Positions 1 to 14,726 of a stretch of 61,891 bases of DNA are shown piece by piece. Position numbers and translations under genes: made by a program. Source of the DNA: Alphaproteobacteria bacterium. Its GTDB lineage: Bacteria > Pseudomonadota > Alphaproteobacteria > Rickettsiales > SXRF01. The stretch spans positions 1 to 61,891 of the forward strand of contig JANYES010000006.1 in NCBI GenBank assembly GCA_025362975.1, read 5' to 3'. Each line of letters starts with the position of its first letter. The first letter of the stretch is position 1. The notes under the pieces were generated by a model. It saw only the letters and a list, made by a program, of their open reading frames with translations. It searched no databases and was not told the origin of the DNA.

Positions 1-495
1 GATGGGTATTTCGAGGCGCATATGGTGCGTGCCGAGCTTGGGTTGCGCAAGGAAAATGCGGTGCCGCGCTATTCGACCACGGGGCCGGATACGATGCGCA
101 GAGCGACGCCCGAGGCGTTGCAGGAATTCAAGGTAAAGCTGTGGATGCAGGGGAGTTTGCAGCTTTATTACCTGTCGCAGGCGAATCATTTCGCGTATTT
201 TCATTTCCTGCAACCTAACCAGTATGTAGCGGATTCGAAAATGTTGAACGAGGAAGAACATAAAATCGCTTATGTGCCGAACGGCGTGCACGGTTCGGCG
301 GTGATTGCCACGTATCCGCAGTTGCTTTCGCATATCGCTGAGCTTCGGGAGCATGGTGTCAACAGCCAGAGCCTGACGGGAATTTATAAGGATGTGACGG
401 AAACCATCTATGTCGATAATTGCTGTCATGTGAACGCGAAGGGTAACACGATGCTGGCTGATGCAATCGGTAATGCAATCGCGGGGGCACCATGA
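1..495 (+). CDS. C-terminal part of an SGNH-hydrolase-like protein (5' end outside window)
   Basis: The reading frame is open to the left edge, so only the last 164 residues are present. Near the C-terminus is [11 protein letters not shown], which resembles the block V Asp-x-x-His of SGNH/GDSL hydrolases, followed by a helix ([10 protein letters not shown]) as is usual there. That would make it an esterase or acyl-hydrolase-like protein, often found in polysaccharide clusters, but the nucleophile region is missing so this is an inference. It overlaps the next gene by ATGA, which suggests translational coupling in a surface-glycan operon. Confidence 0.6.
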
Positions 496-1313
496 ATCGG
501 GTTAGTTGTAAACAGGATAACTGGACGCAGGCGCTTGCCAAGTATTTGGCAGGTGAGGGGTATGCCATCGTGGAGGATATGGTGGATGAGGCGCAGCTTG
601 CGGTGCTGCGCGATAGGCTATATTCGGCACGTGGGAAGATTACTATTGAGATTGGGGCGGACAAGCTGAAGCGCGCGGGCGAGTATGGCGTGCTGCGGAT
701 TATGATGAAGTTTGAGCGGGAGTTTCTGGCGCTGCTGGAAAATCCGGCGATGCTGGCGATAGTGGATGCTACTGTGTCGAATACGGGGATTTTGCACTTG
801 CAGAATGGGTTTATTTTGCCGTCTTATCCGCCTGGGGAAACGCCTGCGAACTTCCAGAACCATTTCCACCGCGATTTTCCGCAAAATATGAACGGGTATC
901 TGGCGTCGGTGAACGTGCTGATGGCGATTGATGAATTTACGAGTGACAATGGCGGCACGACGCTGGTGCCGGGCACGCAACAGGAGGCGGATAAGCCTGA
1001 GCAAGCGTACATGGAAAAAAACGCCATTTCGGCGCAATGTAAAGCTGGCTCGGCTCTGGTGTTCGACTCCACATTGTGGCATGCCTCGGGGATAAATGTT
1101 TCAGGCAAGGACCGGCTGGCGATCAATCATCAGTTTACGCGCTCGTTTATCAAGCAGCAGATCGATTATTGCCGGGCGTTGCCAGCGAAGACGATTCTTG
1201 GGCTGCTGCCACGCAGCCAGCAATTGCTGGGTTGGTATACGCGTACGCCGACATCGCTTGAGGAATATTACCGTCCCGAGGACGAACGACTTTACCGAAA
1301 AAACCAGGGGTAA
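492..1313 (+). CDS. Phytanoyl-CoA dioxygenase (PhyH) family protein
   Basis: A 273-residue protein with the non-haem iron ligand set of the Fe(II)/2-oxoglutarate PhyH fold: an H-x-D pair in FHRDFP (about His126/Asp128) and a distal His in STLWHASG (about 197), followed by an Arg in [10 protein letters not shown] that could bind 2-oxoglutarate. Members hydroxylate diverse small molecules and sugars or lipids; the substrate here is unknown. It starts inside the stop of the upstream gene (ATGA) and ends 2 bases before the glycosyltransferase, so it belongs to the same operon and may modify a sugar or lipid intermediate. Confidence 0.85.
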
Positions 1314-1315
1314 GC

Positions 1316-2242
1316 ATGAAACTTTCTATCGTGACCACGCTTTATCAATCCGCACCATACCTGGAGGAATTTTACACGCAGATGTCGGCGGCGGCGGCTG
1401 AAATTACTCATGATTATGAGATCATCATGGTCAATGATGGTTCGCCGGATGCGTCGCTGGCGCTCGCGCTTAAGTTGCATGAGAAAGATCCGCGCGTGAG
1501 CGTGGTCGATCTGTCGCGTAATTTCGGCGAGCATAAGGCGCGCATGACTGGGCTTTCGCATGCGACGGGGGATTATGTGTTCATGATTCAGTGCGACCTT
1601 GAGGTTTCGCCGCATTGTCTGGTGAATTTCTGGGTTGATATGCAGTCTTTTCCGGAGGTGGATTATATTACGGGCGTGCAGGAAAAGAAGCGCGGCAGCG
1701 TTATCGAGCGCGTGTGCAGCACAGGGTTTTATAAACTGTTCAATATGCTTTCAGATGTAAAGCTCGGGCTGAATGAGGCGAGCGTGCGGCTGATGTCGCG
1801 GCGGTTTGCCGATGCACTGCTGGAGCATAAGGAACGCTCGGTGTTTTTTGCGGGGTTGTGCCAGATGACGGGGTTTGGGCAGAAGGAACATGCGGTGGTG
1901 AAGACACGCTCGAACAAGGGGTCGTATTCGTTGCGTAAGAAAATGGCGATGGTAGTCAATGCCGTTACGGCATATTCGACGATGCCGCTGGTGATTGTGT
2001 TTTATCTGGGGTTGGGGATTTCGGTGCTGACGGCAATGTATATTGCGATGATTCTGGTGAAGAAGATGTGTTTCGATATCGAGATTACCGGGTGGACATC
2101 ACTGATTGTTTCGGTGTGGTTCTTTGGCGGGGTGATCATGGCGTCGGTGGGGCTGGTGGGGCTGTATATTTCGCGAATATTTATTGAGGTGAAGCAGCGG
2201 CCTTATACGATTGTGAAACAGTTTTACAAGGGTAAGCCATGA
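1316..2242 (+). CDS. Glycosyltransferase family 2 with C-terminal membrane anchor
   Basis: A 308-residue protein. The N-terminal GT-A domain begins SIVTTLYQSAPYL, with IIMVNDGSPD for nucleotide binding and VDLSRNFGEHKA, which is typical of the dolichyl-phosphate-mannose synthase/GtrB/ArnC group. Two hydrophobic segments (about 220-245 and 260-290) form the membrane anchor. The usual DADLQ metal motif reads IQCDLEVS, so one aspartate is shifted. It probably transfers a sugar from a nucleotide donor to a polyprenyl phosphate at the inner face of the membrane. The next gene starts within its stop codon. Confidence 0.88.
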   Translation: MKLSIVTTLYQSAPYLEEFYTQMSAAAAEITHDYEIIMVNDGSPDASLALALKLHEKDPRVSVVDLSRNFGEHKARMTGLSHATGDYVFMIQCDLEVSPHCLVNFWVDMQSFPEVDYITGVQEKKRGSVIERVCSTGFYKLFNMLSDVKLGLNEASVRLMSRRFADALLEHKERSVFFAGLCQMTGFGQKEHAVVKTRSNKGSYSLRKKMAMVVNAVTAYSTMPLVIVFYLGLGISVLTAMYIAMILVKKMCFDIEITGWTSLIVSVWFFGGVIMASVGLVGLYISRIFIEVKQRPYTIVKQFYKGKP

Positions 2243-3075
2243 GCCTGATCGCGTGTATGAATACGCAGACGATTTATGCGGAAACACTGCCGAATAAGAT
2301 TCGCAATTCAGCGAAGGCGGGGTTTACGGCGATGGAGCTGTGGATTGACGAGGTTGAGGATTATTGTAAGCAGGGGCATACGCTGGCGGATGTGAATAGG
2401 ATGCTGGCGGATAACAATATCAAGTGCCTTTCGACGATTAAAATCGAGGGTTGGTTTGAAAATGACGGCGAACTGATGGGCGTTGCTGACGACCATCGGC
2501 AGATCATGGGCGAGTGCCGCCGCAGGATGGAAATCGCTAAGACTTTGGGGTCGCCGTATATCATCGCGTGTCCGAGCTACAGCCATCGCGGGCATTCGGC
2601 GGAGTTGCAGCAGGGAGTGGATTATTTTTATGAAATCCTTGAGCTGGGGCGCGAAGTCGGGATTGTGCCGACGATTGAATTTTTGGGGCAGAGCGGGCAG
2701 ATCAACACGATTGAAATCTGCATGGATTTTTTGAAACGTGTGAATCATCCCGATGGGAAGATGGTGGTGGATTCGTATCATCTATGGCGGGGCGGTGGGA
2801 AGATTGAGGATTTTGCGAAGGCGGATGTTAGCATCGTCAGCATGCTGCATATTAATGATATAACACCGGAGATTGACCGCGCGGTGTATCGCGACCGGAA
2901 TAGGATATTACCCGGTGATGGCGTGCTGGATTTGACGCGCTTTATCGCCATTGCGCGCGAGATGGGGTATTCGGGCGTGGTGTCGCTTGGGGTGTATAAC
3001 CGGGCGCTTTGGGAGCGCGATAGCCTTGAGGTATGTATCGATGGCTATCAGAAGACGATGAAGTTTTTAGAGTAG
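2239..3075 (+). CDS. Sugar phosphate isomerase/epimerase (xylose-isomerase-like TIM barrel)
   Basis: A 278-residue protein of the AP-endonuclease-2/xylose-isomerase-like barrel family. Visible marks are the opening strand ACMNTQTIY, GFTAMELWIDE, an E in the PTIEFLG strand, DSYHLWRGG with the D-x-x-H pair, and MLHINDI near the C-terminus. These are the metal ligands expected for a sugar epimerase/isomerase. The start overlaps the GT2 stop by ATGA. It is the last plus-strand gene of the operon and overlaps the minus-strand gene at its 3' end by 9 bases. It probably supplies or interconverts a sugar for the glycan made here. Confidence 0.82.
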   Translation: MSLIACMNTQTIYAETLPNKIRNSAKAGFTAMELWIDEVEDYCKQGHTLADVNRMLADNNIKCLSTIKIEGWFENDGELMGVADDHRQIMGECRRRMEIAKTLGSPYIIACPSYSHRGHSAELQQGVDYFYEILELGREVGIVPTIEFLGQSGQINTIEICMDFLKRVNHPDGKMVVDSYHLWRGGGKIEDFAKADVSIVSMLHINDITPEIDRAVYRDRNRILPGDGVLDLTRFIAIAREMGYSGVVSLGVYNRALWERDSLEVCIDGYQKTMKFLE

Positions 3076-3987
3076 TTCACTGATACTGGGTAGGCGTTCG
3101 GTACTGGCGATGCCAATGCCGGTTTTTCCGTAATCGTTGCCATTGTAGAGCATCCACCATTTGCCTTTGGCGGCGAAGACGTGTGCGTAGGCAATCATCT
3201 GTGAGTCCCAGCCGGTGGGACCTGTTGCGATGCCCGCTTTGTCATCGATGCGTTTCCAGCTAATGCCGTCGTGCGAGGCGGCGAAGCCGATTTTGTAGGC
3301 GATGCCGCGCACGGAATACCACATGAGATAGCCACCTTTGATCGCCACGACGCATGGGCGGGCGATGGCGTATTCGTCGTCGTTAGAAAAATCGATGCAG
3401 GGACGGGTGGTGCGTTTCCAGTGTATGCCGTCGGCGGATTCCGCGTAGCGGATGTGGTAGTAGTGTTTGGGGCCGGACGCACTTTCTTCCCAGCGCTGAC
3501 CGGAGACGTACCACATGCGCCAGAGATTGCCTTCTTTGAGGACGCAGGGGGAATTGTTGAGGTAGGGGTCGGTAATGGAACGGCCGAGGATTGGCGCGGT
3601 GGAAACGCGGGTGAATTCTCCGCCGGAGCTGGTGGCGAGGCCGATGAAATTGTAGAAAGGGACGGTTTTGCCTAAGGCCCAGCCGGTGTAGTAAAGGTAG
3701 CAGTCGTTGCCGCTGTTGATGGCCCAGCTGATCATGGCGCCGCTGTCGTCGAAAGCGCCGAGTGGGCCGGGGCTAAGTATTTCGGTGACGGGGCCTAGGG
3801 TGGGCATGGGGGTAGAAAAATCGAGGTCGGCGGCGAAGACGTGCGAGCGCGACTGCGCGTCGCGGGAGGCGAAAAACAGACGGTGGCTGTCGTTGGGCAG
3901 CGCGAGCGCAAAAGGCAGGGCGGCGTGCGAGGCGGAGAAGGCGCTAACGGCGTTACCGTCCAGCAATAAGCCTTGTTTCTGCCACAT
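3067..3987 (-). CDS. Glycosidase-like five-bladed beta-propeller protein (GH43/GH32-like fold)
   Basis: I chose the ATG at 3987 because GGAGA lies six bases upstream; an open extension to 4083 has no good ribosome site. The resulting 306-residue protein has recurrent propeller-blade motifs: YLYYTGW, LWRMWYVSGQRW, IRYAESADGIHWKR, YLMWYSVRG, FAASHDGISWKRID and WWMLYNGNDYG. These S-D-G-x-x-W blades are typical of GH43/GH32/GH130-like propellers. No signal peptide is evident. Its substrate is unknown. It is convergent with the sugar-isomerase gene, which it overlaps by a few bases. Confidence 0.72.
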   Translation of the reverse strand: MWQKQGLLLDGNAVSAFSASHAALPFALALPNDSHRLFFASRDAQSRSHVFAADLDFSTPMPTLGPVTEILSPGPLGAFDDSGAMISWAINSGNDCYLYYTGWALGKTVPFYNFIGLATSSGGEFTRVSTAPILGRSITDPYLNNSPCVLKEGNLWRMWYVSGQRWEESASGPKHYYHIRYAESADGIHWKRTTRPCIDFSNDDEYAIARPCVVAIKGGYLMWYSVRGIAYKIGFAASHDGISWKRIDDKAGIATGPTGWDSQMIAYAHVFAAKGKWWMLYNGNDYGKTGIGIASTERLPSISELL

Positions 3988-4121
3988 AATTTTTCTCCAT
4001 TTTGTTGGGGCAAGAGTAAGCGGTGGGCGCGTGGGGTCAACAACATTTTTGCGGCTGGAATGACTGCGCGGATGTGCTAACATGATATGAAGCCTGTATA
4101 ATTATAGGGATACGCCGTCGC

Positions 4122-5708
4122 ATGGGTCGCTTTTTGTCGCTTGCATTGTTTGCCGTCTCGGCTGCGACGTTCGCGCTTTCGTTTTTCGTGCCGTTTTACA
4201 TCGATGAGATTATTTATCCGATTACCTCGGCGCGCGCGGGGTTTGACGGGTGGCACACGATTGGCGCGTGGCCGCTGTGCAAGCATAATTTCGATTCGAA
4301 AATTCCGGTTACGCTGTGGCCGGGAAAGTTCTTGTCGTGGGTAACGGATATGCCGTTTTACACGCCAGGTGCGATTCGATCGTACGGTATGGGCGTTTTT
4401 GTGGCGTGGATAGGATTGCTGGTGTGGCTGACGCCGAAATGTTTCGATATCGGCATAACACGCGGTAAGCTGCTGCAATGGGTTCTGGCGGCGAGTTTCC
4501 TTGGGGTATTGCCTTTTTTATCGGTGCTGACGCGGCCGGAAATCCCGATGGCAATGGTGATTGTGCTGTACGCGTTTTTGCCGTTTTATGCACAGAAACA
4601 TGAGTTGACGCAGTTGCAGCGTATATTGCTGAGTGTGATGATACTGGTGTTTTCGTCGTGGTTCTTTTCGTGTCATCCTAAATCGATGTTGTTTGCGCCG
4701 CTGGCGTTTTATGCGACGTGGTCGTTGAAGCCGAAATCCTCATGGGGATGGGGATTTATCGCGGTGCTGCTGGCGATAGTGGTGCAGTCGTATTACTTCC
4801 ACGCGCTGCGCACGTATTGTCCTGAAGATCATGCGTTTGATGCGTTCTTCAAGAAAACGACATTGCAGCCGCAGCTTTTTAGTGCGCAGGCGGGTGTGTT
4901 TATCGAGATGTTCACCCGGGGTGTCGGCGCGGTGACGGTGTATATCGACCACATGATGTTCTCGCAGGATTATGCGTCGGTGTGGCTGCCGCGAGGAAAA
5001 ATTTCCTGGGCGCATGTGGCCGTGAACGGGTTGATGCGTGGCGGCATCGCGCTGGTGGGTGTGCTGTGGTTTTATTCGCTTGTGCGGATTGTGATGGTGA
5101 GTGCGCGGGAGCGCGCGCTGCTCAAACCCGATGTGGCGGTGCCGATGCTGATACTGGCGGCGGTGATTGTGTTGGCTGGATTCCAGCAGGCGAAGAATTT
5201 TTATGATGGGCTGTTTTTCTGGCTGGTGGGCATGGTACTGACGATGGTGTTCTTGGCGCGCTCACCGCTGATTAGGCGCGAGCATGCATATTTCGTAGTG
5301 GCGTTGCAGGTGTTGTCGTTGATGAGCCAGTCGTTGCTGCTTACGAGTTACGTGCGGTTGCAGGATGTAAATCAGGCGGCGCAGACTAATGGTTTTATGC
5401 CGGGGCAGGTGAAATCGGCTTCGATGCTGAATTATGCGGAGCGCTACGCGCGCATTTTGCAGGCGGCGGCAAAGTGCGGAATTCATCCTGAGGATGAGAA
5501 CCGCTACCTTATGGTGGATATGTTTACCTATCTCAGTTTCAAGCAAAGTTATCGCCCGGCGAATGTATCGCACATCAACGAGTATATTATGGCGTTCGGG
5601 CGGGTGTATCATTCGTCGGGGTTGATTGCGCTTTGCAGCGCGTTGCCGCCGGTCTTGGTGCGCCAGTCTGTCGAGGATAACGGCTTATGCTGCCTGCGGC
5701 ATTTTTAA
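4122..5708 (+). CDS. Multi-pass membrane protein, GT-C glycosyltransferase-like
   Basis: A 528-residue protein with about ten hydrophobic segments. The first segment is followed by an acidic pair in PFYIDEIIYP, the position where GT-C enzymes carry a catalytic D/E in the first periplasmic loop. The last ~100 residues are a soluble tail with several Cys. It likely transfers a sugar from a lipid-phosphate carrier on the periplasmic side, but I cannot assign a known family. The start has no strong ribosome site (AGGGA is about 12 bases upstream). It is divergent from the propeller gene, and its stop overlaps the next minus-strand gene by 4 bases. Confidence 0.62.
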   Translation: MGRFLSLALFAVSAATFALSFFVPFYIDEIIYPITSARAGFDGWHTIGAWPLCKHNFDSKIPVTLWPGKFLSWVTDMPFYTPGAIRSYGMGVFVAWIGLLVWLTPKCFDIGITRGKLLQWVLAASFLGVLPFLSVLTRPEIPMAMVIVLYAFLPFYAQKHELTQLQRILLSVMILVFSSWFFSCHPKSMLFAPLAFYATWSLKPKSSWGWGFIAVLLAIVVQSYYFHALRTYCPEDHAFDAFFKKTTLQPQLFSAQAGVFIEMFTRGVGAVTVYIDHMMFSQDYASVWLPRGKISWAHVAVNGLMRGGIALVGVLWFYSLVRIVMVSARERALLKPDVAVPMLILAAVIVLAGFQQAKNFYDGLFFWLVGMVLTMVFLARSPLIRREHAYFVVALQVLSLMSQSLLLTSYVRLQDVNQAAQTNGFMPGQVKSASMLNYAERYARILQAAAKCGIHPEDENRYLMVDMFTYLSFKQSYRPANVSHINEYIMAFGRVYHSSGLIALCSALPPVLVRQSVEDNGLCCLRHF

Positions 5709-5992
5709 AGCGCGTTCAGGTTGAATTTATTTTTTAAATATTGCTTGGTGTCGGCAGTGGGTTCTAAACCAAAACCGCTAATGAGGATCTGGCCGTATTT
5801 GCGCAGATCGGTGTTTTGTTTTTCGACTTCTTTTAGAAAAATATCACGCTTGAGGCGGTCGACCAGAACATAATAAAAAGCGTCGCGGCCGAGCTTATCC
5901 TGCCCCTGGACGAGGTAGAGCAACTCGTTGTCGTGAGTGACGGATTTGGCTTTGAGGCCGGGGAGGTGTGTTTTAGCTGTTGGCTCTGTCAT
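5705..5992 (-). CDS. Small conserved-looking protein, unknown function
   Basis: A 95-residue soluble protein with many charged residues (KLGRDAFYYVLVDRLKRDIF, QILISGFGLEPTADTKQYL). AGGATAC lies directly upstream of the ATG. The YYVLVDRLK and YGQILISGFG blocks look like a compact alpha/beta fold, but I do not recognise a family. It is tail-to-tail with the GT-C-like gene (4-base overlap) and divergent from the SAHH-like operon, with about 115 bases between them. Confidence 0.6.
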   Translation of the reverse strand: MTEPTAKTHLPGLKAKSVTHDNELLYLVQGQDKLGRDAFYYVLVDRLKRDIFLKEVEKQNTDLRKYGQILISGFGLEPTADTKQYLKNKFNLNAL

Positions 5993-6108: not shown

Positions 6109-7686
6109 ATGGCGCGCTTATCGCTCCCGGTGAATCAGGAATGCAATGGTACGCTGCCGGTTACCGGCGAGATCGCGCAGTATTTGCGCGATCAGGGTTT
6201 CGAAGGGTTCGACCCGGACACACATTTTGTGGCCATGCCGCACATCATGCCGGACGTGGTGGACTGGCTGTCGGCGATGATCGAGCTTGGCATCAAGCCG
6301 CAGAACATCCACCTCATCGGCAAACAATATTCGCAGGTCGATGAAACGCGCGACAAGCTCATCGGCATGGGCATTGACGTGATGGAATATACACCGACGC
6401 CGGTGGGGCAGTATTACGACACGCTACTGAATGTCGATTTACCAAAATTCTGGGAGCACGCGCAGGAGAAAATCAAAAGCACTGGCAACGGAAAGCCACG
6501 CACGGTGATCGTGATGGATGACGGCGGACGGTTGCTCCGCAGCACGCCGCCGCAAATGATCTCGGACCCGAATATCAAAATTGTCGGCGTTGAACAGACG
6601 ACGAATGGATTCGACGTGGTGAGTGAGCACGGGCATCCGATCGATATCGTGATTCCGGCGATGTCGGCGCTGAAACTGGAATTCGAACCGCCGTTCATCG
6701 CCGATGCGGCGCTGCGCAAATTGCGCGACAAGCTTGGCATGTTCCATAACCGCGACGTGGCGGTGGTGGGGGTTGGCAAGATCGGCGGGGCATTGTGCGA
6801 GACGCTGGCGGATAACCGCAACAGTGTGTTTGTGTACGATCCGGCGGTAAAAATTTCCGATGGCCAGCTTTCCGACCCGCAAGGGTTAATTCCGGCTGGT
6901 ATCAATGTGTATGCAGCGCCTGTGGGCAATGAGAAAAAAGCGAACGCCAGATTGCTGCGCGCCAGCAATCCGCCGTCACGCTCAAATTATTACATCTGCG
7001 ATTCGCTGGAGCATGCGGTGCAGAGCAGCAACTATGTGTTCGGTTGCACGGGCAAGGATATTTTTCGCGATATCGATCTCGATAAGATGCGTTTTCAGGG
7101 ACCGGGCAAGGCCATAGCCGAGACGCGTTTTATCAGCGTGTCGTCGGGCGATAAGGAATTCCAGAGTTTGCTTAAGTGGATTACGCAGCAGCCGGAAGGA
7201 TTCAAACATCACGGACCGGATGAAAAGCTGGGCAGCCGATGGGACGTGACGATCAATCACAAGGGCAGTAAGCTGCGCGTGGCGCAGCAGGGATTCCCAA
7301 TCAATTTCGATGGCAAAACCTGTAGCGGCACGCCGGAGGAAATGCAGCTGATTTCCTCGTTCCTGCTGGCGTCGATCGTGCAGGGCTACGATTATGTAAA
7401 TAAATACCCGGTGAAATCGCAAGATGACCAGAAAAACCTGATTATGCTGTCGCCGACGGTGCAGCGGCGCATCTTGATGTCTTGGCTTGATAAGGTGCCA
7501 AGCATTCAGGGTTTGTATAAGCCCGAGCGTATTGAAGAAATCCGTAACGACCCGCTGTGGTTCGCTACGCATTCGCGTCAGGGGGAATTCGTGCCGGTGT
7601 TTCGGGATGATTACCCGATACCGGAGGTGCTGGCCAACCGCGTGATTTCGGCGGTGCCGATGGCGAAGGAGAAGGCGCATGGCTAA
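6109..7686 (+). CDS. Diverged S-adenosyl-L-homocysteine hydrolase-like protein
   Basis: A 525-residue protein. The middle carries SAHH-family marks in order: IVMDDGGRLL (matching the DDGGD loop), GVEQTTNGFDVV (matching the EETTTG loop), a K-x-x-F-E segment (SAHH has K-x-x-F-D-N), a Rossmann motif VAVVGVGKIGGALCE at about 220-235, and GFPINFDG (like the xRPVNFxG loop). The catalytic Asp after K is Glu here and the family Cys is not evident, so true SAHH activity is doubtful. The C-terminal ~130 residues are unfamiliar. It heads an operon with three GT-B-like paralogues and overlaps the first by 8 bases. It may be an NAD-dependent enzyme acting on a nucleoside or sugar. Confidence 0.68.
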   Translation: MARLSLPVNQECNGTLPVTGEIAQYLRDQGFEGFDPDTHFVAMPHIMPDVVDWLSAMIELGIKPQNIHLIGKQYSQVDETRDKLIGMGIDVMEYTPTPVGQYYDTLLNVDLPKFWEHAQEKIKSTGNGKPRTVIVMDDGGRLLRSTPPQMISDPNIKIVGVEQTTNGFDVVSEHGHPIDIVIPAMSALKLEFEPPFIADAALRKLRDKLGMFHNRDVAVVGVGKIGGALCETLADNRNSVFVYDPAVKISDGQLSDPQGLIPAGINVYAAPVGNEKKANARLLRASNPPSRSNYYICDSLEHAVQSSNYVFGCTGKDIFRDIDLDKMRFQGPGKAIAETRFISVSSGDKEFQSLLKWITQQPEGFKHHGPDEKLGSRWDVTINHKGSKLRVAQQGFPINFDGKTCSGTPEEMQLISSFLLASIVQGYDYVNKYPVKSQDDQKNLIMLSPTVQRRILMSWLDKVPSIQGLYKPERIEEIRNDPLWFATHSRQGEFVPVFRDDYPIPEVLANRVISAVPMAKEKAHG

Positions 7687-9061
7687 TCTCGGTAAGCGTC
7701 CCAAGGCTGTGTTATGGCTGGAATCTTCGATTACGGCATTGCATGTGCAGCATATGGCGCTGCTGTCGAAGGGGCTGGAGAAAAAGGGGTTCGATGTCGC
7801 GATCCTGACAAGCGAGGACACGATCAAACAATTTGAGAAATCCGGTGGCAAACTCGACGGCGATGTGTGCGCGCGCGATAGTGAGATTGATTTCGGTGAA
7901 CGGGCGCGCTTCCTGCCGGCGCTGGCGTCGCAGACGAGCTATGAGCGACCGCAAGTTGCCAAGCTGCATGACCCGACACTGACGCCGTATGAATTTATCG
8001 GTAGCACTGCGATTTTAAATGAGCGGCATGAGACGATTAAATGCGCGATGGCGCAGGAACAGCCGGATGCGATTTTCACGTCGCTGTGGCCGGGTGGGTA
8101 TGGCCCGTTCACCAAGGAAATTCAGGAGATGGTGAACGAAGCGAAATATCATAATCCGGAATGTAAGACGTATGGGTTCTGTAACGATATTCCATATCTT
8201 GATTCCGCGTATAACCATCCGGCGGATAAGGGGCGGTTGTTCGACAGCATCGACCGTGCGTTTGTGCGCGGGGACGGGACGATGCCGATGCAATCCTTCG
8301 TGGCGCTCGACCGGGATACGCAGGACAAAATGTCGTATATGGGGCATTTTGTGAATGCGCTGCCGCCGAAAACGGCGATGCCGGATAGCCAACGCAAGGT
8401 GTTGGTGACGTATGGCACGCGAGAAAGCGGCTGGACGGGGCCGGCGTATTTCGAATATTTCAAGCGCATCATGCAGACGGTGCCGAAAACGAATTTGCGC
8501 GACAGGACATGGGATCTGGTTGTAGGTTCGGATTGCCCCAGCGTTACGCTGATGTCCCTCAAGTCGATAGCTGAATATACCTCGCAGGAATCGGGCATGG
8601 ATATTCGCGTGCGCAGAGCTGTGCCTGATAAAGCGTTCAGGCAAGATGTCGCGGATGCGGCGTTGCTGGTCAGCCAATACGATATTTTTGTGCTTGACGA
8701 TATCAGCACCGGGATCCCGGCGCTGGTGACGACGGGCAATATCTTACGCAATGCCTGCGGCGCACGCGAGGGCGCAGGGCGGTTGCATAATCTTGAAGAT
8801 ATCGGCGCGCCGGTAAAATATTACGACCAGTATCAATTGAAATATCCGGGCCGCACAGCGGCAGCGATTGACGAGGCTTATGAGAGTGCGAAGCGAAAGC
8901 CCTTCCAACTGCCGACGGACGCACCGGACAAAATAGCGCAGATTGCGATGCGCGATTACGAAATGCTCAAGCCCCGCGCGCGCGAAAGGCCGGACCCTGT
9001 TCTCGATAAGGGCCGTGCGACCCGGCAGGGTGATGAGCGCTCACAAAATAAAAGGTACTAA
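7679..9061 (+). CDS. GT-B-like protein, tandem paralogue 1
   Basis: A 460-residue protein. The N-terminus KAVLWLESSITALHVQHMA, then KGFDVAILTSEDT, looks like the first Rossmann half of MurG/UGT-type GT-B enzymes (strand, then a His in the acceptor site). A conserved TSLWPGGYGPFT block sits at about 138. The second half has VLVTYGTRES, like the V-x-F-G-S strand of UGTs, then DAALLVSQYDIFVLDDISTG-IPALVTTGN, placed where MurG-like enzymes contact the nucleotide. I infer a cytosolic sugar transferase or a binding relative; no donor can be named. It starts within the SAHH-like gene and is followed 8 bases later by paralogue 2. Confidence 0.62.
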   Translation: MANLGKRPKAVLWLESSITALHVQHMALLSKGLEKKGFDVAILTSEDTIKQFEKSGGKLDGDVCARDSEIDFGERARFLPALASQTSYERPQVAKLHDPTLTPYEFIGSTAILNERHETIKCAMAQEQPDAIFTSLWPGGYGPFTKEIQEMVNEAKYHNPECKTYGFCNDIPYLDSAYNHPADKGRLFDSIDRAFVRGDGTMPMQSFVALDRDTQDKMSYMGHFVNALPPKTAMPDSQRKVLVTYGTRESGWTGPAYFEYFKRIMQTVPKTNLRDRTWDLVVGSDCPSVTLMSLKSIAEYTSQESGMDIRVRRAVPDKAFRQDVADAALLVSQYDIFVLDDISTGIPALVTTGNILRNACGAREGAGRLHNLEDIGAPVKYYDQYQLKYPGRTAAAIDEAYESAKRKPFQLPTDAPDKIAQIAMRDYEMLKPRARERPDPVLDKGRATRQGDERSQNKRY

Positions 9062-9069
9062 GAGGAATA

Positions 9070-10446
9070 ATGACGACGCGAACAACACGACCCAAAGTGA
9101 TGCTATGGCTGGAGTCTTCCATGACGAAGATGCATGTGCAGCATATGGCGATGGTTTCCAAAGCGCTGGGGGAAAAAGGTTTCGACGTGACTGTGGTTAC
9201 CAGCGAAGATACGATTAAGAAATTTGAAATCACAGGCGGGAAACTTAACGATGACCGTACGCTGGTGGCAGGCGGCGACATCGATTTCGGGGGGCATGCG
9301 CGCTTTGCTAGAGCGCTGCCTTCACAGACGACGTATGCGGAACCGAAAATCAAAAAAATTGAGGATTCACGCTATCGCCCGTTCGATTTTATCGCCAGTC
9401 CCGCGATTGCGCGGATGCGCAACAAGCAGATCGACGCAGTGATCGCGCAGGAAAAACCGGATGCGATTGTGACATCGCTGTGGCCGAGCGGGTATGGGCC
9501 GTTTACTTCGGAGGTGGAACATATGTTCAGCTCGGCGCGCGCGGCGAATCCGAAAGTCAAAAGGTACAGCCTTTCCAACGATATTCCTTATCTGGATTAC
9601 GATTTTAATGCGCGTTCGGTGAAGGGGCCACAGTTTGATCTCGTGGACAGGACGTTTGTGCGCGGGGATGGCACGTTGCGCATGAGTAATTTCGTGCCGC
9701 TGACGTATGAGAGCGAAAATAAGATCGATTATGTCGGCCATTTCATCGACCCGTTGCCAGCGAGGCAGCAGATGCCCGATTGCGAGCGCAAAGTGCTGGT
9801 GACGTATGGCACGCGCGAAAGCAACTGGGATGGTTACGCACATGCGGGATATTTTAAATCGGTAATCGATTCTATCGGGTTTACGACGCTGACGGCGCAT
9901 CCGTGGGAGCTGGTGATCGGGCGGGGATGTCAGGATGTAGCGTATGAGTATATCAAGCGCTATGCGGATTCGGTCAATAAGCGGTTCAACGCGAATATTA
10001 CTGTGCGCAAGGGCGTGCCGGATAAGCAATACCGGCAGGATGTGGCCAATGCGGCGATGGTGATCAACCAGTTTGATATTTTCGTGCTGGACGATATCAG
10101 CACGGGTGTGCCGATGCTGGTGAGCACCGGGAATCTCGGGCAGTTGAATTGCGGGGCGAACGAGGGGGATGATCGTTTGGAGAGTCTTGAGCGCAGCGGT
10201 GCGCCGCTATCGACCATGCTGCAAAACAACATGGGTGAACCTGCCTATATGGGGCAATTAATCAACGCTGCGTTCAGCCACAAAAACGCCCATAAGTTCA
10301 GCATTCCGGCCAACGCGGCGGATAAGGTGGCGGCGACGATTGCGGCGGAATATAAGGCGGCACATTTGCCAGATCCGGTGCTGGGGCAGGCGCAGGATGT
10401 GACGAAGCAAAGCGAACCTATGGAAAAAAATCAGGGGCGGGGTTAA
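9070..10446 (+). CDS. GT-B-like protein, tandem paralogue 2
   Basis: A 458-residue protein, clearly homologous along its whole length to its two neighbours: VMLWLESSMTKMHVQHMA, TSLWPSGYGPFT, VDRTFVRGDGTL, VLVTYGTRES and FVLDDISTGVPMLV. The WPGG of the other copies is WPSG here. AGAGGAATA directly precedes the ATG. The N-terminal His and the DD-x-STG-x-P motif are kept in all three copies, so all may be functional rather than decaying. The C-terminal 30 residues diverge among copies and look disordered. Function is inferred as for copy 1. Confidence 0.62.
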   Translation: MTTRTTRPKVMLWLESSMTKMHVQHMAMVSKALGEKGFDVTVVTSEDTIKKFEITGGKLNDDRTLVAGGDIDFGGHARFARALPSQTTYAEPKIKKIEDSRYRPFDFIASPAIARMRNKQIDAVIAQEKPDAIVTSLWPSGYGPFTSEVEHMFSSARAANPKVKRYSLSNDIPYLDYDFNARSVKGPQFDLVDRTFVRGDGTLRMSNFVPLTYESENKIDYVGHFIDPLPARQQMPDCERKVLVTYGTRESNWDGYAHAGYFKSVIDSIGFTTLTAHPWELVIGRGCQDVAYEYIKRYADSVNKRFNANITVRKGVPDKQYRQDVANAAMVINQFDIFVLDDISTGVPMLVSTGNLGQLNCGANEGDDRLESLERSGAPLSTMLQNNMGEPAYMGQLINAAFSHKNAHKFSIPANAADKVAATIAAEYKAAHLPDPVLGQAQDVTKQSEPMEKNQGRG

Positions 10447-10447
10447 T

Positions 10448-11836
10448 ATGGAAAACTCGAAACAAGGTGCGGAGGACCAGCGGCCTAAGGCTGTGCTTTG
10501 GCTTGAGTCGTCGATTACTAAGCTGCATATCCAGCATATGGCAATGCTGTCAAAATCGCTGGGCGAAAAGGGGTTCGACGTATCGGTGCTGACCAGTGAA
10601 GATACGGTTCAGCAGTTTAAAAAAGCCGGGGGTAAGCTCGACGGCGATCGCTGCGCGGAAGGCAGCAAAATCGATTTCGGCGAACACGCGACGTTCTTGA
10701 CGCCGCTGGTGTCGCAAAAAACTTACAGTAAGCCCGATATCAGCAAGATTGCCAAATACCGTTACTTGCCGTTTGAGTTCATGGCCAGCCCGACGATCCG
10801 CAGCAATCGCGAAGCAGCTATTTCCAAGGTGATGGATGAGGTGAAACCGGATGCGATTGTGACTTCGCTATGGCCCGGTGGGTATGGGCCGTTTACACCT
10901 GAGGTGGATAACATGGTGGCGCGGGCGAAAAAATATAAGTTCGATGTAAAGGTTTACAGCCTCAGCAACGATATTCCGTATCTGGATTACAATTTGAACA
11001 ACCCAGGCCTGAAGGCAAAGCAGTTTGATAATGTGGACAGGACATTCGTGCGCGGTGACGGGACGATAAAGCTGGATGCGAATATTCCGCTGAGCCGTTA
11101 CGCGCATGACCGGTTGCATTATGTCGGGCATTTCGTCAATAAGCTGCCGCCGCGCACGGAAATGGCAGATAAGGAACGCAAGGTGCTGTTTACCTACGGT
11201 ACGCAGGAAAGCGATTTCAGCGGTGACAATTATTTAAAGTATTTCAAAGCGACGATGTCGGCGGCGTCGTATAGCTACAAGCTGAACAAGCATCCGTGGG
11301 AAGTGATCGTCGGGCCGAAATGCCCGGATAGGGATTATGCGATGATCAAGGAATATGCCGAGAATTTGAACGAGCATGAGGATATGCGCATTACGGTGCG
11401 GCGCGGCGTGTCTGATGCGCTGTATAAGCAGCAGGTAGCCGATGCGGCGCTTCGCATCTGCCAGTACGATACATTTATTCTGGACGATATGAGCACAGGC
11501 GTGCCCGCATTCGTGACCACGGGTAATATTTCCGAGGTGACGTGCGGGGCGCTGGAGGGGAGCACACGCGTGAATAATATACTCCATAACGGCGCTCCGG
11601 TTTCGATTCTCGATCAGTATTATCTGTACGATGTCAATGACATCACGACGCGGCTGAATAAGCTGTATGAAAAAGGCCAGTGCAAAAGCTTTAGCCTGCC
11701 GCTCGATGCGCCGAATAAAGCGGCGGCGATTATCGCGCATGATATCGCGGAGTTACATACCCGGGAGGCACCTGACCCTGTGCTTGATACGGCGCGCGCT
11801 TCGCAGCAGGTGCCGATTGGACGAAGCGTTTCCTAG
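10448..11836 (+). CDS. GT-B-like protein, tandem paralogue 3
   Basis: A 462-residue protein, third copy of the set, starting one base after the stop of copy 2. It keeps AVLWLESSITKLHIQHMA, TSLWPGGYGPFT, VDRTFVRGDGTI, FTYGTQES and ILDDMSTGVPAFVTTGN. The TRES of the other copies is TQES here. The C-terminal part of the first half and the linker differ most, the usual acceptor-specificity region in GT-B proteins, which would suit three enzymes adding different residues. It meets the minus-strand sulfatase-like gene with a 4-base overlap of the 3' ends. Confidence 0.62.
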   Translation: MENSKQGAEDQRPKAVLWLESSITKLHIQHMAMLSKSLGEKGFDVSVLTSEDTVQQFKKAGGKLDGDRCAEGSKIDFGEHATFLTPLVSQKTYSKPDISKIAKYRYLPFEFMASPTIRSNREAAISKVMDEVKPDAIVTSLWPGGYGPFTPEVDNMVARAKKYKFDVKVYSLSNDIPYLDYNLNNPGLKAKQFDNVDRTFVRGDGTIKLDANIPLSRYAHDRLHYVGHFVNKLPPRTEMADKERKVLFTYGTQESDFSGDNYLKYFKATMSAASYSYKLNKHPWEVIVGPKCPDRDYAMIKEYAENLNEHEDMRITVRRGVSDALYKQQVADAALRICQYDTFILDDMSTGVPAFVTTGNISEVTCGALEGSTRVNNILHNGAPVSILDQYYLYDVNDITTRLNKLYEKGQCKSFSLPLDAPNKAAAIIAHDIAELHTREAPDPVLDTARASQQVPIGRSVS

Positions 11837-13338
11837 TTAAAGGGTGAGTCGTTTTGCTGATTCAACTTATCCAGGTCGATTTTTTTGAAATGGTTTTCCA
11901 GCAGGTTGTTATACAGCGTGTCAAGCCGCACTGGTGTGTCGATCACCTGAGCTTGCATGCCGGGGATTTTTAGCGCGATGAACGAGTTGAACCACTCTTT
12001 TTTGGTCAGGTTTTCCATATAGGATTTTGGGTCTTGCGAGCAGTCTTCGCGCAGGCAAATGCGCGAGCCGTGGTCACTGTGGATTAAGACGACGGCATCG
12101 GACATTTTCGGGTTTTTATCCATCGCGTCGGTGATGTTGAACACGTCGCGCTGGGAGCACAGCACCTGATCGAAATGCCGCCTGAACAATTCGGAACCAG
12201 TGAGACCGGTCTGCGCACGGAATTTCCCCGGCCAGAATTTGAGCGGCCTTGAGATACAGTTTTCGTCCATGATGTAGGGGTAATGCGTCAGTAGATTATG
12301 GGAAAAATAATAGGTGCCGCGTTCACCGCCGGTGCCAACGCGCGTGGCGAAATCCTGCATCGCTGTATGCGAGCCTAGTGAGATCAGGGTAGATAAGTAC
12401 CGCTGATGGAGAAGCCTGTTGATAGCGCGCGCGACGGGCGATTTCACGCCGTTTAGAGTCCATTGCTCCGCGACTAGTGTCGCCACGATCATGCGGTCGT
12501 ATAGGCTCATGCCAAGAATATAAGGAATCTGATTATGGGAGTTGTAAGTGTAAATACGTTCCTTTGCCGGATTTTTGGCTAGTGCATAATTGAACGATAT
12601 GTATTTCGCCTGTGTAATATCGATAGCGCGCTCTTTGCCTATCTCGTCGAATGCACTGGAGCGCAGCATGTAGATATCGCCATTAAAGTGGTCTATACCG
12701 ACGAGTTTACTAAGCGAATCGGTCCTTTTGTTGAACATGTGCGGGATGGAGGTCATGGTTAATTTATCTGCCGTGTAGGCATGGGTGAAAACCATGAAGC
12801 CACGCTTGACATATTCCTGTTCAAAAGTGGTTATTTCCTCAGGGGAAATAATTTTCGGAGGGATGTCAGCAAGGCCCGTGTGCTCGTCTAGAAGAATATG
12901 GACTACAGGGAAAAGATCCGAATGTTTGACTTGCCAGTGAGACAGACCGAGATTCTGCCCGGGCGTTGAAATGGCGGCGGTAGCGATTTGCGAAAAAGCC
13001 GCGACGGCGCTTAAGATCAGTGCCTTGTCGGGCAGGCGGTGACATAGAATCAGGAAAGCCGCTGCCAGCAGCGATGACGGTACCATGCGCCACATGCTCT
13101 GGCTGAGCAGCGGTTCGTAATACAGTGTAACGCTGAAAATAGTGGCGCAAAATATTAAAGCACCGCAAAAATAAGGCAATTTCGTCAGAAGCGCACATGT
13201 ACCGCCGATGAGCAGGCAGGCCAGCGCGTAGAGGAGGTATTCGATCATCCACGGGAGGTAGCCGCTATTGGATAATGCAGGGAGGGGGATTACGGCGATG
13301 ACCAGCGTCCACAGCGCGATGTGCGCGAGCAGCTTCAC
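11833..13338 (-). CDS. Membrane-anchored sulfatase/phosphoglycerol-transferase-like protein
   Basis: A 501-residue protein with about four to five hydrophobic segments in the first ~150 residues and a soluble domain afterwards. The soluble part has VVHILLDEH near its start, where alkaline-phosphatase-fold enzymes bind metal; TMTSIPHMFN, in the position of the Thr/Ser nucleophile; and VVLIHSDHGSR, the typical D-H-G metal motif near the end. This is the plan of LPS phosphoethanolamine or phosphoglycerol transferases. The start overlaps the stop of the methyltransferase gene upstream, so the two are probably coupled. Substrate unknown. Confidence 0.72.
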   Translation of the reverse strand: MKLLAHIALWTLVIAVIPLPALSNSGYLPWMIEYLLYALACLLIGGTCALLTKLPYFCGALIFCATIFSVTLYYEPLLSQSMWRMVPSSLLAAAFLILCHRLPDKALILSAVAAFSQIATAAISTPGQNLGLSHWQVKHSDLFPVVHILLDEHTGLADIPPKIISPEEITTFEQEYVKRGFMVFTHAYTADKLTMTSIPHMFNKRTDSLSKLVGIDHFNGDIYMLRSSAFDEIGKERAIDITQAKYISFNYALAKNPAKERIYTYNSHNQIPYILGMSLYDRMIVATLVAEQWTLNGVKSPVARAINRLLHQRYLSTLISLGSHTAMQDFATRVGTGGERGTYYFSHNLLTHYPYIMDENCISRPLKFWPGKFRAQTGLTGSELFRRHFDQVLCSQRDVFNITDAMDKNPKMSDAVVLIHSDHGSRICLREDCSQDPKSYMENLTKKEWFNSFIALKIPGMQAQVIDTPVRLDTLYNNLLENHFKKIDLDKLNQQNDSPFN

Positions 13339-14726
13339 GCGGTGCGCTCGAATTGCAGCAGAATCCTGCCGCTATCGCCGATGGGGTGTTCGCTGATGTT
13401 AGCGTGTTGGCTGAGATGGGTCTTGAAGGCGTCGAGCGTATAGTCGGGGAAGATATCGGGGCGCAGTTGCAGCATGCCCGTGACCTGCGGGTCGGATTTG
13501 GGGACAAATTCCAGCAAGCCGCGCGGGGCGAGGGAGGTGAGGTAGTGCGCGATGTGCGGCAGCGGGATGTTGTTGCCGATGGCGAGGTGATGGATGAGGG
13601 CGAGGGCCATGATGGCGTCGGGCTTGATGCGCTTGGTGAAGCCGGGGCGTTCAATGCCGCGCCAGCCTTGCGAAGGCGAGGGGTTGGCTATGTCCATCAC
13701 CAGCGGGGTGAAATGGGTGCTGCCGTGCTGGAAGGCGGCGTTGACGGCGGCGCGGTCGGAGTCGATACCGATGGCGCGAGTGGCGCCGCTGGCGAGGGCA
13801 TGGCGGGCGAAGTCGCCGCTGTTGCAGCCGATATCGAGCAGTAGCGCGGGGCGTGTGGATTCGATGAAGCGGGCGACGATGGCTTGTTTGGCGGTGGCGT
13901 TGGCGGTGTTGTAGCTGGTGGTGGCGTTGTAGCCGTGCCAACCGCCTTCGCGGCGGGGGCGCAAGGGTTCGATAATGCTGCGCAGGTGTTTTAACAGTCC
14001 GATGTAGCGGGATTTGAGTAGGGGTGTGAGGATGGCCATCTTGCCTTGTTCGAGCGGCTGCGAGCGGCGTTCGCCGTAGGCCGGTGCGGCGACGTGGAGG
14101 GCGATGGCGGGGCGCAGCCAGTGGTGTTTGGGCAGCAGGGATAGCAGCGTTGCGCTGTCGATGCCTTCGAGGCTAGCGCGAAGGTATGGCGTGAAGGAAA
14201 CGCCAGTGATGGCTTCGAGGATCAGCGGGTTGAAAAACTGGTGCAGGAACTGGCGGTAGCCAGCCCAGCGCATACCGTTTTCGTATGGGATTATGGAAAG
14301 CGGGTCGATATGCAGCGGGCGTGTGCCGATGAACTGTATGTTGTAAGCGGAGGCATCGGATAAGGTAAAGCCTTGGCTAAGTAGCGCCAGATGCAGGTCG
14401 AGATGGGCGAGTGCGGCAGATTTCAGGGCGGCGAACGGCCATTCGTAGGGGTAGGTGATAAGGTCGAGTTTGGGATGCGTAAGGATGTGGCGGGCTTGCA
14501 GGGTTTGATGTAATGGGTCGCCGACGGGAAGCAGGTCGCTGGCGATCATGCGGCCGCTTGCGCTCATGCGTTGCAGGATGCCGCTTTGCCAGACGGAGGT
14601 GAAGGCGTGCTCGCCGTGGGCGAGAATGGTGCGCAGGATTTTCCTGTCTATGTGATGCACATGCCCGGAAGGGTCGCGGAACGAGGCGGGATCGGCGCCG
14701 TTATTTTCCAGCGTCATCGCGGTCAC
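13335..14726 (-). CDS. Class I SAM-dependent methyltransferase with N-terminal extension
   Basis: A 463-residue protein. The second half has the SAM-binding motif I LLLDIGCNSGDFARHA at about 295, followed by AIGIDSDRAAV (motif II acidic residue), LVMDIAN and IMALALIHHLAIGNN. The first ~280 residues contain LSDASAYNIQFIG and PLHIDPLSIIPYE, a pattern I associate with a family of large methyltransferases in glycan clusters, with Asp residues like a kinase-like loop. The GTG at 14726 gives the longest form; an ATG at 14717 is equally possible. It overlaps both neighbours, so the three minus-strand genes form one unit. Confidence 0.8.
   Translation of the reverse strand: MTAMTLENNGADPASFRDPSGHVHHIDRKILRTILAHGEHAFTSVWQSGILQRMSASGRMIASDLLPVGDPLHQTLQARHILTHPKLDLITYPYEWPFAALKSAALAHLDLHLALLSQGFTLSDASAYNIQFIGTRPLHIDPLSIIPYENGMRWAGYRQFLHQFFNPLILEAITGVSFTPYLRASLEGIDSATLLSLLPKHHWLRPAIALHVAAPAYGERRSQPLEQGKMAILTPLLKSRYIGLLKHLRSIIEPLRPRREGGWHGYNATTSYNTANATAKQAIVARFIESTRPALLLDIGCNSGDFARHALASGATRAIGIDSDRAAVNAAFQHGSTHFTPLVMDIANPSPSQGWRGIERPGFTKRIKPDAIMALALIHHLAIGNNIPLPHIAHYLTSLAPRGLLEFVPKSDPQVTGMLQLRPDIFPDYTLDAFKTHLSQHANISEHPIGDSGRILLQFERTA

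What the first reader, a model, noticed from the sequence alone, without database searches (positions are those of the whole stretch)
6109..11836. Operon of a diverged SAHH-like enzyme and three GT-B-like paralogues
The sequence shows one ~525-residue protein with SAHH-type motifs (DDGG, an E-x-TT loop, Rossmann GxGKxG, xPxNFDG) whose catalytic Asp after Lys is Glu, followed without gap by three homologous ~460-residue proteins with a GT-B plan. I know no described pathway that pairs an SAHH-like protein with several MurG/UGT-like proteins. It may be a nucleoside- or sugar-linked modification system for a surface glycan or a secondary metabolite.
Basis: partly seen in the sequence, partly recalled or inferred. 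Interest (0 to 1): 0.65.

Follow-up and report, generated by a model that had tools for sequence, protein, structure and literature searches.

The report
SAH-hydrolase offshoot with altered glycosyltransferase-like partners
In a Rickettsiales-order bacterium, four genes in a row encode an offshoot of the enzyme S-adenosylhomocysteine hydrolase whose active site has been rebuilt, plus three sister proteins that look like altered glycosyltransferases; the pairing recurs in a distant relative, so it is probably a small, undescribed biosynthetic pathway.

Summary
Window 6109-11836 (+) carries four intact, tightly packed genes: a 525-aa SAHH-like protein and three 458-462-aa paralogues (47-50% identical). 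SAHH homology is real: profile E 3e-10 against the genome's own AHCY; the predicted model matches SAHH structures at Z 27. It is not canonical SAHH: it falls outside AHCY in the tree, and all 15 aligned family sequences keep His55, Asp131, Lys186 and Asn346 (human numbering) but have Glu for Asp190, Pro/Ser for Asn191 and Ser for His301; Glu156 is Gln in 14. The genome also has a normal AHCY.

The pairing recurs: genome G327, another family of the order, has a 63%-identical SAHH-like gene followed, with the same 8-nt overlap, by one GT-B-like gene. All four SAHH-linked GT-B-like proteins have lost the G-H loop and remodelled the donor motif seen in unlinked relatives.

Elsewhere the SAHH-like family sits beside histidine kinases (also on phage-like contigs) or an unknown protein. 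Best reading: an NAD-dependent nucleoside/sugar-modifying enzyme in small-molecule cassettes, working like the angustmycin dehydratase AgmF. Substrate and product are unknown. New variant of a known kind.

The parts
6109..7686 (+). SAHH-like protein, 525 aa; NAD-type Rossmann motif; Glu193 at the Asp190 place of SAHH
7679..9061 (+). GT-B-like paralogue 1, 460 aa; overlaps the SAHH-like gene by 8 nt
9070..10446 (+). GT-B-like paralogue 2, 458 aa
10448..11836 (+). GT-B-like paralogue 3, 462 aa; its end overlaps by 4 nt the end of a convergent gene (11833-13338, -)
5705..5992 (-). divergent 95-aa small protein; the copy at the same divergent place in G327 is 65% identical over 78 residues; a dispersed family with 7 matches in this genome. 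Possible flank of the shared unit, function unknown

Best explanation
The operon encodes a small biosynthetic cassette. The SAHH-like protein is an NAD+-dependent enzyme of the SAHH fold that no longer hydrolyses SAH. Like AgmF of the angustmycin pathway it would oxidise a hydroxyl of a furanose (nucleoside, nucleotide or nucleotide-sugar) with its conserved Lys189 and bound NAD+, use Asp137/His45 for proton abstraction and elimination or addition next to the ketone, and reduce the ketone again. The three GT-B-like proteins, whose donor-binding motif is remodelled in a shared way, would then use that altered compound as donor or acceptor. Shown: operon, homology, predicted fold of the SAHH-like protein, conserved and changed catalytic residues, pairing in two genomes, motif change in the GT-B-like proteins. 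Inferred: NAD binding, catalysis, the order of steps, the substrate class. Unknown: substrate and product.
For: Fold: model with pTM 0.80 and mean pLDDT 75.3; the 50 rows listed by Foldseek and the 50 listed by VIA-align are SAHH or SAHH-like entries, best Z 27.4, rmsd 3.0 A over 366 residues at 14% identity. Residues: His45, Asp137, Lys189, GxGxxG and Asn399 are kept in 15 of 15 family rows and in 13 of 13 rows of a wider alignment with two canonical AHCYs, while Glu156>Gln/Phe, Asp190>Glu, Asn191>Pro/Ser and His301>Ser separate the family from AHCY. A normal AHCY is in the same genome and in G327, so a second SAH hydrolase is not needed. Pairing: in G327 the SAHH-like gene (63% identity) is followed with the same 8-nt overlap by a GT-B-like gene 48-50% identical to each window paralogue. 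Precedent: AgmF, an SAHH homologue that did not accept SAH, is an NAD+-dependent nucleoside dehydratase in a cluster with a phosphoribosyltransferase and a phosphatase (PMC8599513, passages). A remote relative on a Streptomyces plasmid lies in a run with a methyltransferase, a phosphoribosyltransferase and a HAD hydrolase.
Against: AgmF keeps its Asp188 and His299 and both are essential there; here the matching places are Glu and Ser, so the elimination half of the mechanism may be lost. The adenine-binding His353 equivalent could not be placed, and the C-terminal Lys-Tyr tail that closes NAD in SAHH (recalled) is not recognisable in the alignments. Only 2 loci carry the GT-B pairing; of 23 loci counted, 13 have F1 and 6 have a kinase instead, and a 24th, L113, has none of the three in its 21 kb. 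The two other genomes of the genus, G001 and G002, lack both families. GT-B assignment rests on remote profiles (E 0.0015 to PDB).
Confidence: 0.45

Rival explanations
1. Regulatory or retired enzyme: the SAHH-like protein binds NAD or a nucleoside as a ligand-sensing partner (as IRBIT-type SAHH homologues do, recalled) and controls the GT-B-like proteins or, in relatives, the kinases, without catalysis.
For: Four active-site places differ from AHCY in all or nearly all family rows; the best PDB hits of the family profile are the chains named adenosylhomocysteinase 2 and 3 (3mtg, 3gvp); in two IMG/VR contigs and four genomes it sits beside histidine kinases.
Against: The Lys186, Asp131, His55 and Asn346 equivalents never vary (15 of 15), which a pure binding role would not demand; no kinase or GT was seen fused to it.
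Confidence: 0.2
2. Surface-glycan tailoring: the operon belongs to the glycan-type genes around it and the three GT-B-like proteins add sugars to a polysaccharide, the SAHH-like enzyme making the nucleotide-sugar.
For: Neighbours in the window look glycan-related, all by matches below the curated cut-offs: GT2/PgfS-like 1316-2242, mannobiose-phosphorylase (GH130)-like 3067-4083 (-), sulfatase-like 11833-13338 (-, E 0.018).
Against: In G327 one flank holds ribosomal protein L28, hisZ- and purA-like genes, the other the small gene and a long ORF (gene names from reading the translations), so the glycan context is not conserved; the donor motif is remodelled in all four linked proteins.
Confidence: 0.15
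3. Signal synthase: the SAHH-like family makes a diffusible nucleoside-like signal, detected by the membrane histidine kinases next to it in relatives; the window operon makes a glycosylated version.
For: SAHH-like next to same-strand histidine kinases in 6 of 23 loci counted; for the L022 and L023 kinases the best NCBIfam match is LuxN, E 2e-31 and 1e-37, over the kinase domain only; the pair is also on two IMG/VR contigs.
Against: For the other kinases scanned (L116, L021, L112, L115) the best matches are TorS, WalK or BarA models, not quorum-sensing ones; the sensor resemblance to CqsS is from recall; no kinase beside the window or G327 genes; no signal known.
Confidence: 0.12
4. A second true SAH hydrolase that clears SAH for a methyltransferase.
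For: In F1-type loci a SAM methyltransferase is often close.
Against: Active-site changes; normal AHCY in G000 and G327; no methyltransferase inside the window operon.
Confidence: 0.05

Closest known systems
S-adenosylhomocysteine hydrolase (AHCY/SAHH, PF05221/PF00670)
   Same: Predicted overall fold (Z 27), GxGxxG, His55/Asp131/Lys186/Asn346 equivalents
   Different: Glu for Asp190, Pro/Ser for Asn191, Ser for His301, Gln/Phe for Glu156; outside AHCY in the tree; not listed by either Pfam model; the window and G327 proteins have an insertion after the second Rossmann strand
AgmF, angustmycin dehydratase (PMC8599513)
   Same: SAHH homologue in a small biosynthetic cluster, acting with tightly bound NAD on a nucleoside sugar (shown for AgmF, inferred here)
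   Different: AgmF keeps Asp188 and His299; no GT-B gene was mentioned in the passages read; AgmF's sequence was not compared here
Adenosylhomocysteinase 2 and 3 (AHCYL-type; 3mtg, 3gvp)
   Same: SAHH fold; best PDB profile hits
   Different: They keep Lys..Asp-Asn in the printed alignment; eukaryotic (recalled)
GT-B predicted glycosyltransferases of Alphaproteobacteria (COG4671-like by recall; PF13528 above cut-off in L025)
   Same: Shared profile over much of the length; an acidic residue kept at the donor-motif position
   Different: The four SAHH-linked proteins lack the G-H loop and have [YF]D.F.LDD in place of [GS]YN..E

Membership tests
AHCY (SAHH) proper | Score above Pfam AdoHcyase / AdoHcyase_NAD cut-off | tested here: not met
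   neither family listed for the window protein up to E 10
AHCY (SAHH) proper | Phylogenetic place among AHCYs | tested here: not met
   3 AHCYs plus L102 form a 100/99 group without it; only 3 AHCYs were in the tree and long branches are flagged
AHCY (SAHH) proper | Catalytic set His55, Asp131, Glu156, Lys186, Asp190, Asn191, His301 | tested here: not met
   3 of these 7 kept, 4 changed
AHCY (SAHH) proper | SAHH fold | tested here: met
   predicted model
AHCY (SAHH) proper | SAH hydrolysis | not testable with these tools
   no assay
AgmF-type nucleoside dehydratase | Essential H56, D129, K184, D188, H299 of AgmF | tested here: not met
   residues from PMC8599513 mapped through AHCY: His, Asp, Lys kept; Asp188>Glu, His299>Ser; no direct alignment to AgmF
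AgmF-type nucleoside dehydratase | Cluster with phosphoribosyltransferase and phosphatase | tested here: not met
   no such gene among the four of the window operon; seen only for the remote Streptomyces relative
GT-B glycosyltransferase | Profile match to GT-B enzymes | tested here: met
   7vlb E 0.0015 with a 7-row profile; relative L025 over the PF13528 cut-off; the window proteins alone match no Pfam model above cut-off
GT-B glycosyltransferase | Predicted GT-B fold | tested here: inconclusive
   pLDDT 47.9; best Foldseek rows are mostly GT-B but TM at most 0.28 (query-normalised)
GT-B glycosyltransferase | N-terminal G-H loop and [GS]YN part of the donor motif | tested here: not met
   0 of 4 SAHH-linked proteins; 8 of 8 (loop) and 10 of 10 (YN) unlinked relatives that cover the region
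GT-B glycosyltransferase | Acidic residue after the YN motif | tested here: met
   Asp in 4 of 4 linked proteins; Glu in 9 and Asp in 1 of 10 relatives

The most novel reading that the evidence does not exclude
The SAHH-like family is a new class of synthase for nucleoside-derived diffusible signals or effectors in intracellular bacteria, Simkania and their phages, paired modularly with membrane receptor kinases, with F1-type tailoring genes, or, in the window and G327, with GT-B-like proteins that have a new donor specificity.
Probability: 0.13. Interest if true: 0.85.

Novelty: new variant of a known kind. Interest (0 to 1): 0.52.

Why it matters
An SAHH-fold enzyme family with a remodelled active site, conserved in bacteria of which 15 of 17 searched carriers lack a complete AHCY, and repeatedly joined to sensor kinases, small-molecule-type genes or altered GT-B proteins, would reveal unrecorded nucleoside- or sugar-type metabolites in Rickettsiales, a group with few known specialised metabolites (recalled).

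Tried and rejected
Chance motif match: rejected by profile and fold comparison. Canonical or duplicated AHCY: rejected. Link of F1 (the ~450-aa partner in Rickettsia-type loci) to the GT-B-like or SAHH-like families: hhalign probabilities about 0.1%. Defence system: no PADLOC match to the SAHH-like protein and paralogue 1; paralogues 2 and 3 were not scanned there. Phage origin of the window genes: no PHROGs match to any of the four; no GT-B relative in viral contigs; no match of L116's SAHH-like protein in the phages collection. No plasmid holds a match to GT-B paralogue 1. The first genome-contig scan with the window protein found nothing; the second, with the family alignment, gave 10 loci. 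One of these, L113 (a planctomycete MAG), was missed by my longest-first ORF picker; a later check found it is a full family member (434-aa open frame, E 2e-90) with none of the kinase, F1 or GT-B partners in its 20,960 bases and no Pfam match in seven frames scanned, its own and six nearby. It is not in the 23 loci counted, nor in the alignments. L106, L108, L109, L111 and L112 lie in contigs of the same length as those of L093, L094, L089, L018 and L020 and are counted once; near copies in different records (L018/L095, L091/L092, L115/L116, and L105/L107/L110/L114) are counted apart. Not in alignment A4: L096 (cut by a contig end) and L095 (near copy of L018). Weak hits (45 of 62 genomes) were not counted as family members; of those I looked at four: L103 and L104 are AHCY (L103 partial), L097 and L098 are other SAHH-like branches. 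Promoter and terminator scans gave no more sites than shuffles. Literature: the listings showed no paper on an SAHH-like/GT-B pair or on this family; only held open papers are covered.
Full report
What is there. The four ORFs are present as described. The start of the first paralogue overlaps the end of the SAHH-like gene by 8 nt; the next gaps are 8 and 1 nt; all four have gene-like GC by codon position. The window is contig C6 of a 3.26-Mb genome, G000. The order is Rickettsiales by inference: loci that the search marks as same order lie in contigs of the same length as records titled as Rickettsia endosymbionts (for example L111 and G084:C106, 32,084 bases). The organism itself is unnamed.

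The SAHH-like protein. The window protein alone matches no Pfam or NCBIfam model above cut-off and no PDB chain convincingly (best E 0.63). A family profile of 15 sequences (A4) matches PDB chains of the AHCY family, best 3mtg (adenosylhomocysteinase 2, E 7.5e-19) and, among plain AHCYs, 9pdh (E 3.2e-16), and the genome's own AHCY by hhalign at 96.7% and E 3.2e-10. An AlphaFold model from 12 sequences has pTM 0.80 and mean pLDDT 75.3; the 50 listed Foldseek rows and the 50 listed VIA-align rows are SAHH or SAHH-like entries, best Z 27.4 with 3.0 A over 366 residues at 14% identity.

Active site. The mapping goes through the printed alignments and the column counts. Human AHCY numbering is recalled; the rat numbers Asp130, Lys185, Asp189, Asn190, His54 and Glu155 appear in reference titles seen. 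Kept in 15 of 15 rows (window included): His45 (His55), Asp137/138 (Asp131), Lys189 (Lys186), the GxGxxG, Asp244 after the second strand, Asn399 (Asn346). Changed in 15 of 15: Asp190 to Glu193, Asn191 to Pro or Ser, His301 to Ser346. Glu156 is Gln in 14 of 15 and Phe in 1. The genome has a separate normal AHCY on C15.

Distribution. Of 343 genomes of the order, 17 (the own one included) have a strong family match, E below 1e-70. The other 45 of the 62 genomes with any match are weaker; of these I looked at four, two AHCYs and two other SAHH-like branches. In a phylum sample of 398 genomes the only such strong match is the own genome. Complete AHCY is found in 2 of the 17 carriers, G000 and G327; G052 has only a 77-aa open frame with stops in the match. 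Outside the order the family reaches a planctomycete MAG (L113, profile E 2e-90), the Simkania negevensis plasmid pSn (37% identity to L022), two IMG/VR contigs and, more remotely, Streptomyces and Agrobacterium plasmids. The other two genomes of the same genus, G001 (79% complete) and G002, have neither family.

The pairing recurs. G327, in another family of the order, has an SAHH-like gene of 528 aa, 63% identical over 501 residues, followed with the same 8-nt overlap by a 471-aa GT-B-like gene 48-50% identical to each window paralogue. Close GT-B-like relatives exist in only these two of 343 genomes, in both cases beside the SAHH-like gene; three more genomes have remote ones, best E 1.5e-14 to 2.1e-10. 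The three window paralogues are as far from each other as from the G327 protein and their branching is unresolved, so the triplication is old or the G327 locus has lost copies. A divergent small gene also lies upstream in both; the two copies are 65% identical, whereas the highest identity listed for any other match in 71 searched genomes is 44% (G327 was not among those 71). No other neighbour was recognised as shared; in G327 genes that read as ribosomal protein L28, hisZ and purA lie on one side, the small gene and an 1802-aa ORF on the other.

The GT-B-like proteins. A 7-sequence profile matches a UDP-glycosyltransferase in the PDB at E 0.0015, the relative L025 is over the cut-off of PF13528, and the profile of the four linked proteins finds matches in 39 of 337 genomes of the class, the own one included, the others at E 3e-13 or weaker. 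The fold prediction from the three paralogues failed (pLDDT 47.9), so its mostly GT-B Foldseek rows are only suggestive. Ten relatives were aligned with the four SAHH-linked proteins: three from G031 and G044, one from a second locus of G327, and six of the class hits. The linked proteins lack the Gly before the N-terminal His (0 of 4, against 8 of 8 relatives that cover it). Where the relatives have [GS]YN (10 of 10), the linked proteins lack the two residues before the aromatic one, have Asp for Asn and one extra residue after it, reading [YF]D.F.LDD; the acidic residue that follows is kept, as Asp. That motif is where GT-B enzymes of this type hold the nucleotide of the donor (recalled). 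These proteins have therefore probably changed donor, or job.

Partners elsewhere. In the 23 SAHH-like loci counted: 2 have the GT-B partner; 13 have F1, a ~450-aa protein with no Pfam or NCBIfam match, on the same strand; L090 has F1 pieces farther away; 6 have a histidine kinase within 600 bp on the same strand; L096 is cut by a contig end. A 24th, L113, has none of these partners. The tree separates the three groups (with the long-branch warnings printed there). For the kinases of L022 and L023 the best NCBIfam match is LuxN (E 2e-31, 1e-37), over the kinase domain only; for those of L116, L021, L112 and L115 it is TorS, TorS, WalK and BarA. The membrane part of the L022 and L023 kinases resembles CqsS by my recall only. 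F1 relatives on Legionella plasmids sit beside a methyltransferase and an MFS transporter, or beside genes annotated as glutathione synthetase, MoaD/ThiS, MoeB/ThiF, YcaO and TfuA, which look like small-molecule clusters.

Mechanism. The kept Lys, Asp, His and NAD motif fit SAHH-type oxidation and proton abstraction; the changed residues argue against SAH as substrate. The best precedent is AgmF, an SAHH homologue that did not accept SAH and dehydrates a nucleoside with tightly bound NAD+ (PMC8599513; passages read). AgmF keeps Asp188 and His299, which are essential there and are changed here, so this is 'works like', not 'is'. The Streptomyces plasmid relative, which shares the Lys and the Glu, lies in a run with a methyltransferase, a phosphoribosyltransferase and a HAD hydrolase, again pointing to nucleoside-type chemistry. 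From this I infer an NAD-dependent nucleoside- or sugar-modifying enzyme feeding three GT-B-like proteins. Confidence is moderate because no substrate is known and the pairing is in two genomes only.

Verdict. It is a conserved new variant of the SAHH and GT-B kinds; the searches made here found no description of it.

Noticed in passing
L115:7884-9923, L116:7884-10790 (IMG/VR contigs): SAHH-like gene followed within 7 bp by a histidine kinase with a hydrophobic N-terminal part (complete only in L116), on contigs called viral; a single-strand-DNA-binding-like gene is nearby in L116.
   Followed up: partly
L022:7073-10667, L023:6369-9919: Three-gene run SAHH-like, membrane histidine kinase (best NCBIfam match LuxN, kinase domain), response regulator, in two genomes of one family.
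   Followed up: partly
L113:9770-11071 (+): SAHH-like family member in a planctomycete MAG, with none of the three known partners in 21 kb.
   Followed up: partly
L130:6657-9610 (Simkania plasmid pSn): SAHH-like gene overlapping an SDR oxidoreductase gene, then an EamA transporter.
   Followed up: partly
L131:10738-17035 (Streptomyces plasmid): Remote SAHH-like gene in a run with GNAT, methyltransferase, phosphoribosyltransferase and HAD hydrolase.
   Followed up: partly
L145:6001-9549 and L146:5888-11818 (Legionella plasmids): Relatives of the unknown F1 protein beside methyltransferase/MFS genes, or beside genes annotated glutathione synthetase, MoaD/ThiS, MoeB/ThiF, YcaO and TfuA.
   Followed up: partly
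window 5705-5992 (-): Small protein family with 7 matches in this genome and matches in 48 of 71 genomes searched (own included); a copy also lies just upstream of a GT-B-like gene in G031 (G031:C2:11819-11992).
   Followed up: partly
L124:4238-6649 (-): Second, remote GT-B-like gene in G327, split by a stop; its downstream part runs on into what reads like an ATP-grasp domain (by eye).
   Followed up: no
L027:2306-6074 (-) and L104:9293-12430 (+): The normal AHCY gene is followed by a histidine kinase gene in both genomes; PAS domains were found in the L104 one, the L027 one is called a kinase by eye.
   Followed up: no
window 1-5708 and 11833-14726: Genes around the operon with mostly sub-cut-off matches to glycan-type families: GT2-like, sugar isomerase-like, GH130-like, sulfatase-like; plus a methyltransferase above cut-off.
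   Followed up: partly
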